64,000 bases of DNA from Flammulina velutipes. Its lineage: Eukaryota; Basidiomycota; Agaricomycetes; Agaricales; Physalacriaceae. The translations under genes were made by a program, and so were the position numbers. The stretch lies in assembly GCA_011800155.1 (NCBI GenBank), contig CM022372.1, positions 1,054,001 through 1,118,000 on the forward strand, written 5' to 3'. Shown here one piece after another: positions 40,358 through 51,312 of the stretch (position 1 is its first letter; each line of letters starts with the position of its first letter). The notes beneath the pieces were generated by a model, which made no database searches, was not told where the DNA came from, and saw only the letters and a program-made list of their open reading frames with translations.

Positions 40358-40385
40358 TTTGGCGGTAATACTGTTGCATAATTCA
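40358..40385 (+). repeat. Left terminal inverted repeat of the 11 kb element
   Basis: GGCGGTAATACTGTTGCATA followed by ATTCAG. The same sequence marks the left end of the small element at 34394. Confidence 0.85.
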
Positions 40386-40600
40386 GCACTTCGTTCTGAG
40401 TGTTTTGCGCACTTTCTCAAACGCTATTTCACTTTTTCTCCGCCTCTTCTCACTTAACACAAATCAGATTTAGCTTTGAAAACACACTTGTACTTCACAG
40501 AAATCCAGATTCACTTCCGGAAATTACAATTCACTTTGAGGTTTTAAGGATTCACTTTTCCACTTTGACTTTCGCTATTCAATCTAAGGTTTTACTTCAG
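40386..40600 (+). repeat. Left sub-terminal CACTT array
   Basis: About nine CACTT/TTCACTT motifs spaced roughly 20-30 bp apart, all in one orientation. They mirror the AAGTG array at 51060-51280, as expected for transposase-binding sites. Confidence 0.65.
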
Positions 40601-40676
40601 TAATTTGATACTGAGTTCACAAATCTGTCACTAGGAATATTTGCGCCACTAGCGCCACAATGATATTTAATTACAA

Positions 40677-43600
40677 TTAACCGGAAAAGTATTCTTTAGT
40701 CTTCCAGCCATTGCGGTTGTCTACCCACGCTGTTCCGTCATGGTCGCTATGAAAAACAAATGAGATACGCTTGCCCTTGTACGGCAAGTTGAAGTGTGTA
40801 ATATCACACGAGCGGAAAACCAGGGAATGTCCTGTATACATACGCACAACTAGCCCAGGCTCATACAGAACAATGTCTCCTCCCTCCCCATCTTGAGCGG
40901 CGAGGACAAGACAGATGCGTTTGTCGCCGTGATCTCGGTGAGCTAAAGTAGAGACGTTGAAGTTGAGGACCATGCCTCCGAAAGGGTAGACGGCGGGCGC
41001 CGAAGGTCCGGGGAGAACAGTGATGTATGCGTCGAGGACGGTGTAGTGTTCCTTTAATAGAATGAGCAGCTAGAGAGAGGATGAGAAGAGAGCCAATAAA
41101 ACAATGCAAAGCATACCTGAGCTGTTAGCCAATCCATCAGTCCTTGGAGTGCTTTCTTCAGAGTCTCCAAGCGCTCATCTTGACCTTCGGTAGATAGTCG
41201 AGGGAGACATTGAGAGGGATCGATTCGTTTTTTCCCATTTTTTCCCTGCTTCCAGGGATCACCAGATGAAGGTGCGTCTGTGCCCTGGTCCAGTTGAGAA
41301 GTCCGCACACTGTACTTGAAACAAACAAGAAGACTTACTCTGGTGGCAGATCGGTTATAGAACGTATGATGCAGTACAAAGAAGCGATGGCCGTCGTTGG
41401 AGTCACGCGTCCGGAGAATGGAGGGGAAAATCTCCTCGACCATGGGAATGATAATATCAGCATATTCCTTAGGTGCCGGGGGCAGAGAGATCGCAAAAGG
41501 CAATCCATCATGGCCTCCAATATGAGCAAACTTGTTCGGGTCACTCGAAGGAGGTCAGATCATAGTGTTTCAAAGAGACGACAGGTACGTACTTGGCCAT
41601 GATGACGGTTCGATCCAAGAGAACATAGTGAGACGGCTCCTCTCGATAGCCCGGAGCCAATTGTGACGCCAACTGGAGACATGATCACCAGTAATAAAAA
41701 TAAAGATACAGATGACTTACGCGATTGGAGAAATCCTTGAAATCCTTGGGAACGTAAGCGCATTCGGCCAGAGCACGTTCAGCCTTTGTGAACTCCAAAG
41801 TCTTCTTTCGAGTCGGGGCTCGAAGCTTGAACTTGTTTCGCGGGTGATCAGGTCTGAAGCTTGTCTTGACCTTCAAGTGATCCTTGCCCTCAACCTTTGC
41901 CAGCGCATCAAGAACATCTGTCCAATACCTCTGACTCGTTGCTTCAACTGCCGGGTCTTCATCATGCCGATCCTCAAGCTCCTGCGATAATGTTGAATCA
42001 ATGTCGTCGTGGTCGTGCAAGGGAAGAAGGGAGCCCAGGGAAACAGATGTATATACTGGGCTGACGACGGCGCCACGTGCCCAGAATGTCAAGTCGCGCG
42101 AAGGAAGATGGAACGTGCTGTAAATGATTCAGATAGATAGGGATTAGCTAAACGGAGCGTACTTGGTCTTGAAAGCTTTGAAGAAGGTATCAGATGATAC
42201 CCAATCCTCCAGCCTAACACTTGAATCAATTTTCATCACCCTGAGAGTTTCGTTGTCAAAGAGGCGGCAGGAATCCACGGGGAAGGTGTCTTGAAGGAGC
42301 TTGATGGAGGGTGCCAAGGTCGAGGCAAAGAGTCTGGTTAAAGAAAGGCCTGGATATGGTGAATCAGTTAAGAGGCTAGCGAGAGATAAGAAACGAAACG
42401 ACTTACCTGGACGCGGCGCACGAATGTGATAGCCCATATTCACCATGTGAGTAACGTTAACGTTTTCAAACGTTGAGGTCTCCCGCGCGAAGATGATGAG
42501 AAGAGTTAAATAAATCCCCCCGGCCTGTCCAACCAGAGCCCATCGTTTACCCTTCACAAACCACCGCTCCCACTTGCTGAAACTGTAGCTTGGGTTGAGC
42601 GGAAGCATATATACTTCCCATACTCTCTGCAAAGACGTCACATTGTCTCTGCCTCAAGTCAGTGCTTGATGTTGGTAAGTAGGAATTCACTTACTTTTCC
42701 ATCAAAGCCTGTACCTTCGCTGCTAAGGAAAGAGAGGCCAAGACTCCAACAAACTTGGCGTGGTCCTCATCCCGATGAGCCTCGAGGCACGCTTTCCCCA
42801 GTCCAGCTAGTGTCGACATGGCATCCTCAGACGCTCCCGATGGTAGTGCACTGATCCCGAGGAGGCGTTGAATATCCATCTCCCATGCGTTGGTGTACGC
42901 TTCGTCATACAAAAGACGGCTAGCCTTGCCGCAGAGACGTGTTACTGCAGCTATGAGTGCCTTGTCTATAGGCCTAAAGTATGGGTCGTCGTAGTAGGCG
43001 AAGGGAGAGGGCTGGATGGGAGACATGAAGGAGAACACATGAGATTGAGGAGGAGGAGCCGTCGTTGTGCTACCGACACTCGGAGTGGAATGCTGAGTTG
43101 CAGAAGGGTTGGATGTTTGGCTGGTAGAAGTGCCCCCTTCATCGCTGCCTTGCATCGCCTGGTCATGCGCGCGTGCCTGCTGTACACGCTGTTGCGCGTG
43201 AGCAAAATGTATCATCCCAGGTGGAGGGACCACCCCGCCACGGTTACAGCTACTACCTCGTCTTCGACGGTCTGCAGCACGCCCGCGGTCTGTATCGTCG
43301 TCGTCATCCGAAAGGGCTGATCCGGCGAAGAATGATTCAACGGCGTCATCGAACACTGTGGCGCTAGCACAAGTGGCAGCTGACTCCGTGAAGAAGCCTT
43401 CAACATAAGGGTCAAAGGCCATGGCGCTAGCTTGGCTAGCAGACGTCTGGTTGGAGTGGGAGTCCACGGTCCGAAAACTGGGACGCGGCGGAACGTCTAT
43501 CGCGTAGTCGAAGTCTACGCGTCGTTCAGTTCAAAAACATTCTATTTATAAATCTGAACGGACTTACCTGAAGCCGAACGAAAATGTAGCGGCCTCTGAG

Positions 43601-43807
43601 GCGTTACATTGGGAGTGGGTAGGAAGCCTTTTTTAAAGTAGACATTAGTGTTGATAACAGCCAATCCCAATATTACGCACCTGATTGCCTGGAGGACAAC
43701 TCAATGCGCACCGCTCGCCAAACAGGCGTTAAATGGTCGCCGTGTTGATCCAGCATCGTCCTGAGCTGCGCGAGAGATTCGGCGTCCAAGGCGTCCAAGT
43801 CAATCAT
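40677..43807 (-). CDS. TET/JBP-like 2-oxoglutarate/Fe(II) dioxygenase of the transposon
   Basis: Large protein, roughly 750 residues, with a C-terminal oxygenase domain of the fungal TET/JBP type; characterised members of this superfamily oxidise 5-methylcytosine or thymine in DNA. The start is MIDLDALDAESLAQLRTML; two short introns join ELSSRQS to GFLPTPNVTPQRPLHFRSAS and DVPPRPSFRTVDS. The middle is low-complexity and acidic. A conserved-looking region follows (FDNETLRVMKIDSSVRLEDW, FKLRAPTRKKTLEFTKAERA). Core: EHYTVLDAYITVLPGPSAP, the HxD iron motif in LAHRDHGDKR, GGDIVLYEPGLVV, the distal His in DITHFNLPYKGKR and the following Arg as 2-oxoglutarate ligand (ISFVFHSDH). All four ligands are present. 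It could mark or demethylate element DNA. Assignment to TET/JBP rather than another oxygenase family rests on motif pattern only. Confidence 0.72.
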
Positions 43808-51019: not shown

Positions 51020-51059
51020 ATGTAAAACTCTATCTTGAACATCTCGTCCTTGAAAGTTG

Positions 51060-51280
51060 AAAGTAAAGCTATATTGCTCAAGTGGATTTGCCAATTTTGA
51101 GAAGTGAAACTGCTTTTGCCAAAGTGAAGCAGATATTGTCAAACTGCAAGCCAATTTGAGGGAGCCAGCACGGCATTGTCAAAGTGGAATTTGATTTGAT
51201 GAAGTGACGCCACATTCACATAAGTGAATATCAATTTGAATAAAGTGAAATACAATCATGTAAAACGACAAAAAAAGTGC
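51060..51280 (-). repeat. Right sub-terminal AAGTG array
   Basis: About eight AAGTG motifs (for example AAAGTGAAGC, AAGTGACGCC, AAAGTGAAAT) in the orientation opposite to the left array. Confidence 0.65.
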
Positions 51281-51286
51281 CATCTA

Positions 51287-51312
51287 GAATTATGCAACAC
51301 TATACCGCCCAT
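51287..51312 (-). repeat. Right terminal inverted repeat of the 11 kb element
   Basis: The reverse complement reads ATGGGCGGTATAGTGTTGCA then TAATTC. It matches the right end of the small element (36183-36208) and, with a few changes, the left TIR. Confidence 0.85.

What the first reader, a model, noticed from the sequence alone, without database searches (positions are those of the whole stretch)
40358..51312. 11 kb TIR transposon pairing a TET/JBP-like oxygenase with an integrase-type DDE transposase
The sequence shows one unit with shared TIRs and sub-terminal arrays that encodes an oxygenase (HRD...H...R ligands intact), a large Cys-rich/HPD protein and a D,D,E transposase with an HTH. 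TET/JBP genes of mushrooms have been linked to KDZ-type transposons. Here the only transposase is of the integrase-core type, so the association would be a different, possibly undescribed, mobile system in which the element may control methylation of its own DNA or of its host.
Basis: partly seen in the sequence, partly recalled or inferred. Interest (0 to 1): 0.92.

Follow-up and report, generated by a model that had tools for sequence, protein, structure and literature searches.

The report
Fungal transposon carrying a demethylase-like gene
An 11-kb fungal jumping gene carries, besides its own cut-and-paste enzyme, a gene resembling the enzymes that remove methyl marks from DNA, and evolution has kept that gene working, which suggests the element uses it to escape being silenced; similar pairings were described in rust fungi and a truffle in 2025, so this is a new variant rather than a new kind.

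Summary
Window 40358-51313 (10,956 bp) is a DNA transposon with 27-bp imperfect TIRs, subterminal directional CACTT arrays and three intron-containing genes: a TET/JBP-like 2OG-Fe(II) oxygenase (10 exons), an orphan Cys-rich protein ending in a YHPDRN motif (15 exons) and a D-D-34-E integrase-core transposase (PF24764, 3 exons). The genome holds two more copies of this family and one of a diverged family (68% DNA identity over the transposase gene); all four coding copies carry relatives of all three genes. Eight of nine TIR-bounded elements examined have perfect 6-bp target duplications; the window copy has none. dN/dS is 0.04-0.19 for whole genes compared, 0.09-0.10 for the oxygenase C-terminal part.

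'Possibly undescribed' is only partly right. Kojima (December 2025, PMC12730594) described TET/JBP+ IS3EU transposons (6-bp TSD, TAYGG ends) in rusts and a truffle, with an alpha-kinase gene. This element is IS3EU-like (one TATGG end, one TTTGG end) but lacks the alpha-kinase, has another gene order, an orphan partner gene, and an oxygenase with neither the AG nor the PE signature. The three oxygenase relatives found are agaricomycete. Most likely function: anti-silencing by 5mC oxidation (inferred, untested). New variant of a known kind.

The parts
40358..51313 (.). whole transposon, 10,956 bp
   Evidence: TIRs, and homology boundaries with two other copies
40358..40384 (+). left TIR TTTGGCGGTAATACTGTTGCATAATTC
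   Evidence: 9 listed genome-wide, control 0
51287..51313 (-). right TIR TATGGGCGGTATAGTGTTGCATAATTC (reverse complement)
40385..40657 (.). left subterminal array of directional CACTT motifs (9 counted in 40358-40657)
51013..51286 (.). right subterminal array, AAGTG on the + strand (8 counted in 51013-51312)
40677..43807 (-). TET/JBP-like 2OG-Fe(II) oxygenase gene, 10 exons, 892 aa; catalytic motifs in the last exon 40677-41069
   Evidence: spliced model; homologues; Pfam; dN/dS
45844..49272 (+). orphan middle gene, 15 exons, 904 aa: Cys-rich N-terminus, C-terminal YHPDRN motif
   Evidence: model; no homologue among the candidates scored; conserved in the C8 copy and, at 30-60% per exon, in the diverged C13 copy
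49437..51019 (+). integrase-core DDE transposase gene, 3 exons, 495 aa, D232-D289-E324
   Evidence: PF24764 E=1.5e-60
43808..45280 (.). intergenic region between divergent genes, in large part unalignable between copies
34394..36209 (+). short element with the same TIRs and TSD TAGATG, none of the three genes (non-autonomous), 4 kb upstream
   Evidence: L026

Best explanation
An autonomous cut-and-paste DNA transposon of the IS3EU-like kind. SHOWN: TIRs, 6-bp target duplications, several dispersed copies, an integrase-core DDE transposase, and a TET/JBP-like oxygenase and an orphan protein that stay with it in two diverged families and evolve under purifying selection. INFERRED: the transposase binds the TIRs and/or the subterminal CACTT arrays, makes staggered 6-bp target cuts, and also mobilises the short elements that share the ends. 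INFERRED: the oxygenase oxidises 5-methylcytosine on the element, diluting or removing the silencing mark laid down by the host's own C5-methyltransferases, so the element escapes transcriptional silencing. The middle protein is most likely an accessory (DNA- or protein-binding adaptor) of transposition or of the oxygenase.
For: Perfect 6-bp TSDs in 8 of 9 elements examined; 4 of 4 coding copies hold relatives of all three genes. Oxygenase models are free of internal stops in 4 of 4 copies (the mapped start is not ATG in C8a and the first exon is ill-defined in C13b). dN/dS of the oxygenase 0.139 (C13a) and 0.188 (C8a) whole, and 0.09, 0.09, 0.097 (C13b) for its C-terminal 64%; transposase 0.038 (C13a); middle gene 0.125 (C8a). 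Homologue P0002 (1.6e-29, 33% identity over 55% of the searched part) passes the Tet_JBP cut-off (41.2 vs 34.9 bits) over the catalytic region, and the window's exon 10 has Tet_JBP as its only Pfam match at E<=10 (13.3 bits, sub-threshold). The genome has C5-methyltransferase matches at 4 loci (5 matches), and CpG transitions are 2.0-2.7 times as frequent as non-CpG ones between copies, compatible with CpG methylation. The same proposal is published for TET+ transposons (PMC12730594).
Against: No activity, methylation or expression data. The whole oxygenase protein has no Tet_JBP match at E<=10, its last exon is below the cut-off, and a genome search with PF12851 gave 3 sub-cut-off matches elsewhere and none in the element. 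PDB searches found no TET. Structure models were unusable (mean pLDDT 44 and 36). CpG observed/expected of the element is 0.92 against 0.97-0.98 in the flanks, so no strong CpG decay. The window copy has no TSD.
Confidence: 0.68

Rival explanations
1. The element is as described, but the oxygenase makes a different product (hypermodified base, 6mA oxidation) or acts on RNA or protein, not on 5mC.
For: It lacks the Asp (+11 from the first ligand His; here Val) that PMC12730594 describes as essential for 5mC in the fungal CcTET; the diverged copy's exon 10 also matches the generic 2OG-FeII_Oxy_3 family weakly (17.5 bits, cut-off 27); the whole protein has no Tet_JBP match. PMC12730594 leaves the same question open for PU and PE types.
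Against: The only Pfam family of the two homologues that match any is Tet_JBP, above cut-off in one of them.
Confidence: 0.22
2. The oxygenase is a passively captured gene with no role for the element.
For: 12 of 17 PF24764 loci listed in this genome have no strong oxygenase match near them, so the transposase type does not need one.
Against: It is kept in 4 of 4 coding copies and two diverged families, at dN/dS about 0.1 in its C-terminal part.
Confidence: 0.05
3. A KDZ-type (Kyakuja/Dileera/Zisupton) or Plavaka element, as usual for mushroom TET/JBP genes.
For: Known association in Agaricomycetes (PMC12730594).
Against: Transposase is PF24764 (1.5e-60); no KDZ or Plavaka match at E<=10 for the three proteins; TSD is 6 bp, not 8 (Zisupton) or 7 (Kyakuja), and Kyakuja is described as having no TIRs.
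Confidence: 0.01
4. The oxygenase serves the fungal host (domesticated epigenetic regulator) and the TIR element is incidental.
For: Purifying selection would look the same.
Against: The strong matches to its last exon are the four elements, three of them with TSDs, and one piece on C21 with a stop inside the last exon; no intact copy outside an element was seen.
Confidence: 0.04

Closest known systems
TET/JBP+ IS3EU transposons of rust fungi (PU type) and Tuber indicum (PE type), Kojima 2025, PMC12730594
   Same: IS3EU-type end (TATGG) on one side, 6-bp TSDs, a TET/JBP-like oxygenase inside the element
   Different: Published ones have the oxygenase between transposase and an alpha-kinase gene, and in rusts TIRs over 30 bp ending TAYGG..CCRTA; here no alpha-kinase, oxygenase at one end and divergent from the other two genes, an orphan Cys-rich/HPD gene in between, 27-bp TIRs with one TTTGG end, oxygenase relatives in Agaricomycetes, HxD (not PE) and no AG signature
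IS3EU/GingerRoot superfamily (passages of PMC10045372)
   Same: integrase-like DDE transposase with the first D 100-300 residues from the N-terminus, no HHCC motif, 6-bp TSD
   Different: complete IS3EU families are described as always having TA..TA termini; here TT..TA; homology to Repbase IS3EU transposases could not be tested
Kyakuja and Zisupton TET+ transposons of mushrooms (AG type; PMC12730594)
   Same: class of fungi in which the oxygenase relatives occur, TET/JBP cargo
   Different: no KDZ match in the transposase, 7-8 bp TSDs there, different oxygenase signature
Styx, described as derived from an IS3EU element, of Zymoseptoria (passages of PMC10853768)
   Same: multi-gene IS3EU derivative, searched there with a 6-bp TSD
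   Different: 36-bp TIR; the word dioxygenase has 0 occurrences in that paper's main text

Membership tests
IS3EU superfamily | 6-bp target site duplication | tested here: met
   8 of 9 elements; the window copy lacks it
IS3EU superfamily | TA..TA termini (TAYGG..CCRTA in TET+ rust families) | tested here: not met
   right end TATGG in 9 of 9; left end TTTGG in 9 of 9 elements, diverged family included
IS3EU superfamily | integrase-like DDE transposase without HHCC, first D 100-300 residues in | tested here: met
   D232, D289, E324; PF24764; one Cys before D232, so no HHCC, read from the sequence; PDB search gives only weak retroviral integrase hits (12 of 13 matches, E 0.57-0.83)
IS3EU superfamily | sequence homology to Repbase IS3EU transposases | not testable with these tools
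   Repbase not held; a paper search for PF24764 listed one unrelated bacterial paper
TET+ IS3EU (Kojima 2025) | alpha-kinase gene, TET gene between it and the transposase | tested here: not met
   no PF02816 match in the three proteins at E<=10; 8 matches listed genome-wide, none within 100 kb of a listed PF24764 locus
TET/JBP dioxygenases | HxD...H...R ligand set | tested here: met
   H806, D808, H854, R863; invariant in the 7-sequence alignment
TET/JBP dioxygenases | Pfam Tet_JBP (PF12851) above curated cut-off | tested here: inconclusive
   homologue P0002 yes (41.2 bits, cut-off 34.9); P0003 21, C13b exon 10 15.6, window exon 10 13.3 bits; whole window protein and P0001 no match
TET/JBP dioxygenases | TET-type double-stranded beta-helix fold | tested here: inconclusive
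   models of mean pLDDT 44 and 36 unusable
TET/JBP dioxygenases | oxidation of 5mC in DNA | not testable with these tools
   needs an enzyme assay
AG-type TET | Gly/Ser at +5 and Asp at +11 from the first ligand His (CcTET Gly331, Asp337) | tested here: not met
   Asp at +5, Val at +11
PE-type TET | HxE instead of HxD | tested here: not met
   HRD
PU-type TET | PU-conserved residues of Figure 7 of PMC12730594 | not testable with these tools
   figure not held, only its legend
KDZ transposons | KDZ transposase | tested here: not met
   no KDZ match at E<=10

The most novel reading that the evidence does not exclude
An independent, agaricomycete lineage of IS3EU-like transposons that captured a fourth, undescribed type of TET/JBP oxygenase and pairs it with a dedicated orphan partner protein, forming a three-gene module in which partner and/or transposase target the oxygenase to the element's own ends for self-demethylation.
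Probability: 0.3. Interest if true: 0.68.

Novelty: new variant of a known kind. Interest (0 to 1): 0.5.

Why it matters
It adds an apparently recently mobile example (one copy is 99-100% identical to the window copy over the last 2.5 kb) to the transposons that seem to carry their own demethylase-like enzyme, with an oxygenase that does not fit two of the three published types (the third could not be tested) and a partner gene of unknown function. Two diverged families under purifying selection in one genome make the anti-silencing hypothesis directly testable: one can ask whether elements with the gene are less methylated than the gene-less elements that share their ends.

Tried and rejected
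KDZ identity (no match). J-domain identity of the middle protein: no Pfam match for the whole protein, and no Pfam or PDB match for its C-terminal 113 aa; HPD is HAD in the diverged family; so not claimed. Alpha-kinase partner as in rusts: not found. C21 as a third element: a PF24764 transposase (33% identity) and an oxygenase gene piece (26-42% over four matched stretches, a stop inside the last exon) lie 7-9 kb apart, with a PPR-repeat frame between them and no TIR found; left out of the counts of coding elements. Structure prediction of exon 10 and of homologue P0002 gave models too poor for a fold search, so none was run. PDB searches for TET relatives gave only chance-level hits or none. 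Homologues of the middle protein: none at E<=0.001 among the 7994 candidates scored. P0002 region search: only itself among 1720 candidates. Viral-contig scan with the transposase: no relative. A paper search for TET JBP with fungi, transposon and dioxygenase returned nothing, though the Kojima paper exists, so that phrase search is uninformative. The host species could not be named; agaricomycete is an inference from the three oxygenase homologues (Hymenopellis, Punctularia, Exidia; class checked), the short introns and the genome size. PF24764 loci at C3/C12/C5 and C4/C8 were not resolved to termini. The TATGGNCGG pattern seen at one further PF24764 locus (C3:2039276) also occurs once outside an element in the C8a flank, so it is weak evidence. 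dN/dS rows skipped or undefined: C13a middle gene (interrupted), C8a transposase (one-nucleotide length difference in the mapped frame), C13b middle gene (exon transfer failed; two exons compared instead, one giving 0.232 and one saturated), and whole-gene C13b oxygenase and transposase (dS saturated).
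Full report
OBSERVATION. The unit runs from 40358 to 51313 (10,956 bp). Its ends are imperfect, asymmetric inverted repeats of 27 bp, TTTGGCGGTAATACTGTTGCATAATTC on the left and TATGGGCGGTATAGTGTTGCATAATTC on the right (reverse complement). In the 38.1-Mb genome that holds the window (G000, 23 contigs, unnamed) the left TIR is listed 9 times and the right TIR 7 times with 0-1 mismatches, against 0 reversed-pattern controls each. Inside each end lies a directional array: CACTT 9 times in the left 300 bp (expected 1.55) and 8 times in the right 300 bp (expected 0.77), never in the opposite orientation; 0 of 400 shuffles reached either count. 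The five short elements show the same polarity.

GENES. Splicing with 25 GT-AG introns of 44-57 nt gives three open genes: an oxygenase of 892 aa on the minus strand (43807-40677, 10 exons), a middle protein of 904 aa (45844-49272, 15 exons), and a transposase of 495 aa (49437-51019, 3 exons). [quoted passage not shown] No KDZ or Plavaka family appears among the matches of the three proteins at E<=10. The oxygenase has H806-x-D808, H854 and R863.

OTHER COPIES. Two further full elements (C13a, 11,543 bp; C8a, 11,258 bp) and one element of a diverged family (C13b, 11,311 bp; 68% DNA identity over the transposase gene, 65% over the oxygenase gene) carry relatives of the same three genes in the same order. 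Five short elements of 1.6-1.9 kb match the long one only at the ends, and one further left end (C8:158362) was not resolved. Perfect 6-bp target duplications flank 8 of the 9 TIR-bounded elements examined: C13a, C8a, C13b and all five short ones; the window copy has none, and its left flank repeats ten bases of the TIR (AATACTGTTG), so its left junction is abnormal. In the genome, PF24764 matches fall in 17 loci (30 exon-level matches, a lower bound). Strong matches to the oxygenase's last exon fall in five places, the four elements and a piece on C21 with a stop inside it; four more matches are weak (E 0.002-0.036). A search with PF12851 itself gave three sub-cut-off matches elsewhere and none in the element. 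The middle protein's central exons match only in the four elements (9 matches). The 12 remaining PF24764 loci have no strong oxygenase match nearby; one of them (C3:2039276) has a TATGGACGG terminus-like sequence within its fetched locus, a pattern that also occurs once outside an element.

SELECTION. Between the window copy and C13a, C8a and C13b the C-terminal 64% of the oxygenase has dN/dS of 0.09, 0.09 and 0.097 (dS 0.23, 0.25 and 2.6); whole-gene values are 0.139 and 0.188 for the first two and undefined for C13b (dS saturated). The transposase (window-C13a) gives 0.038 and the middle gene (window-C8a) 0.125; one middle-gene exon against C13b gives 0.232, a second is saturated. Oxygenase models are free of internal stops in 4 of 4 copies, with the caveat that in C8a the mapped start codon is not ATG and in C13b the first exon is ill-defined; the transposase is open in the window, C13a and C13b copies and frame-changed in C8a; the middle gene is open in the window and C8a copies, interrupted in C13a and not modelled in C13b. 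The copies are mosaics: the right-hand part is 95-100% identical, while the 5' half of the oxygenase gene and the intergenic stretch are 67-88% identical or unalignable in the window comparisons, which fits exchange of segments between elements.

WHAT THE OXYGENASE IS. The protein search (residues 330-892; 7993 candidates scored) found three relatives: Hymenopellis radicata (42% over the whole searched part, 5.6e-127), Punctularia strigosozonata (1.6e-29) and Exidia glandulosa (9.7e-21), all Agaricomycetes. The Punctularia protein passes the Pfam Tet_JBP cut-off (41.2 against 34.9 bits) over the region aligned with the window's catalytic exon; Exidia (21 bits), C13b exon 10 (15.6) and window exon 10 (13.3) match it below the cut-off, the Hymenopellis protein and the whole window protein not at all. 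TET/JBP kinship therefore rests on shared homology plus the ligand pattern, not on a direct above-threshold match; AlphaFold models were too poor to help and PDB searches found no TET. By the signatures given in PMC12730594 it is not AG type (Val, not Asp, at +11; Asp, not Gly/Ser, at +5) and not PE type (HxD, not HxE); PU type could not be tested because the alignment figure is not held.

COMPARISON WITH WHAT IS KNOWN. I read parts 1-5 of 7 and the figure legends of PMC12730594 (Kojima, December 2025, passages); its supplementary tables were not available. It reports TET/JBP genes in 11 lineages of fungal DNA transposons, among them IS3EU in seven rust species (6-bp TSD, TIRs over 30 bp, TAYGG..CCRTA) and in Tuber indicum, with the TET gene between transposase and alpha-kinase. 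For Agaricomycotina it lists Kyakuja, Zisupton, EnSpm, Plavaka and Helitron2, not IS3EU. Passages of PMC10045372 give TA..TA ends and usually 6-bp TSDs for IS3EU. The present element matches on TSD, on transposase type and on one end; it differs in the TT left end, shorter TIRs, no alpha-kinase (8 PF02816 matches, none within 100 kb of a listed PF24764 locus), oxygenase position, and the orphan gene. I therefore call it IS3EU-like and do not file it as an IS3EU member. A search of the paper library for IS3EU with fungi and dioxygenase returned only that paper, and IS3EU with Agaricomycetes three papers, of which only Kojima's was read, the other two seen as listings; within what I saw, no agaricomycete TET+ IS3EU-like element is in print.

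MECHANISM. Most likely the transposase recognises the TIRs and the subterminal CACTT arrays and mobilises both the coding and the short elements, and the oxygenase counters cytosine methylation of the element. The substrate is plausible in this host: C5-methyltransferase matches at four loci (five matches) and CpG transitions 2.0-2.7 times the non-CpG rate between copies, although CpG observed/expected in the element (0.92) is hardly below the flanks (0.97-0.98). The enzymatic step and any targeting by the middle protein are inferred. The middle protein has no relative among the candidates scored and is not shown to be a J-protein.

Noticed in passing
window 34394-36209: A 1,816-bp element with the same TIRs and TSD TAGATG, 98.5-99% identical to near-copies on C4 and C2: apparently a recently active non-autonomous family sharing the ends of the 11-kb element but with an unrelated interior.
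   Followed up: partly
window 40348-40357: The left flank of the window copy repeats ten bases of the TIR interior (AATACTGTTG) and there is no TSD, suggesting an abnormal or rearranged left junction.
   Followed up: partly
window 40358-51313 versus C13a and C8a: The copies are mosaics: oxygenase synonymous divergence 0.33-0.41 against 0.07-0.10 in transposase and middle gene, pointing to segment exchange between elements.
   Followed up: partly
G000 C21:40285-53125 (L030, L081, L067): A PF24764 transposase gene and a degraded oxygenase piece 7-9 kb apart with a PPR-repeat frame between them; perhaps remains of a third family.
   Followed up: partly
G000 C3:536546, C12:1918394, C5:3027696; C4:688634, C8:1628791: Other PF24764 transposase loci present in similar sets (99.7% and 88%; 98.8% DNA identity), without a strong oxygenase match nearby; probably further integrase-core transposon families.
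   Followed up: partly
window 36641-38828: Two frames on opposite strands that look alike and resemble BTB/POZ proteins; one has a weak Pfam BTB match below cut-off, the other none.
   Followed up: no
window 30326-31750: Frame of 475 aa with a weak Mur ligase middle-domain match below cut-off, resembling a folylpolyglutamate synthase (name recalled, not tested).
   Followed up: no
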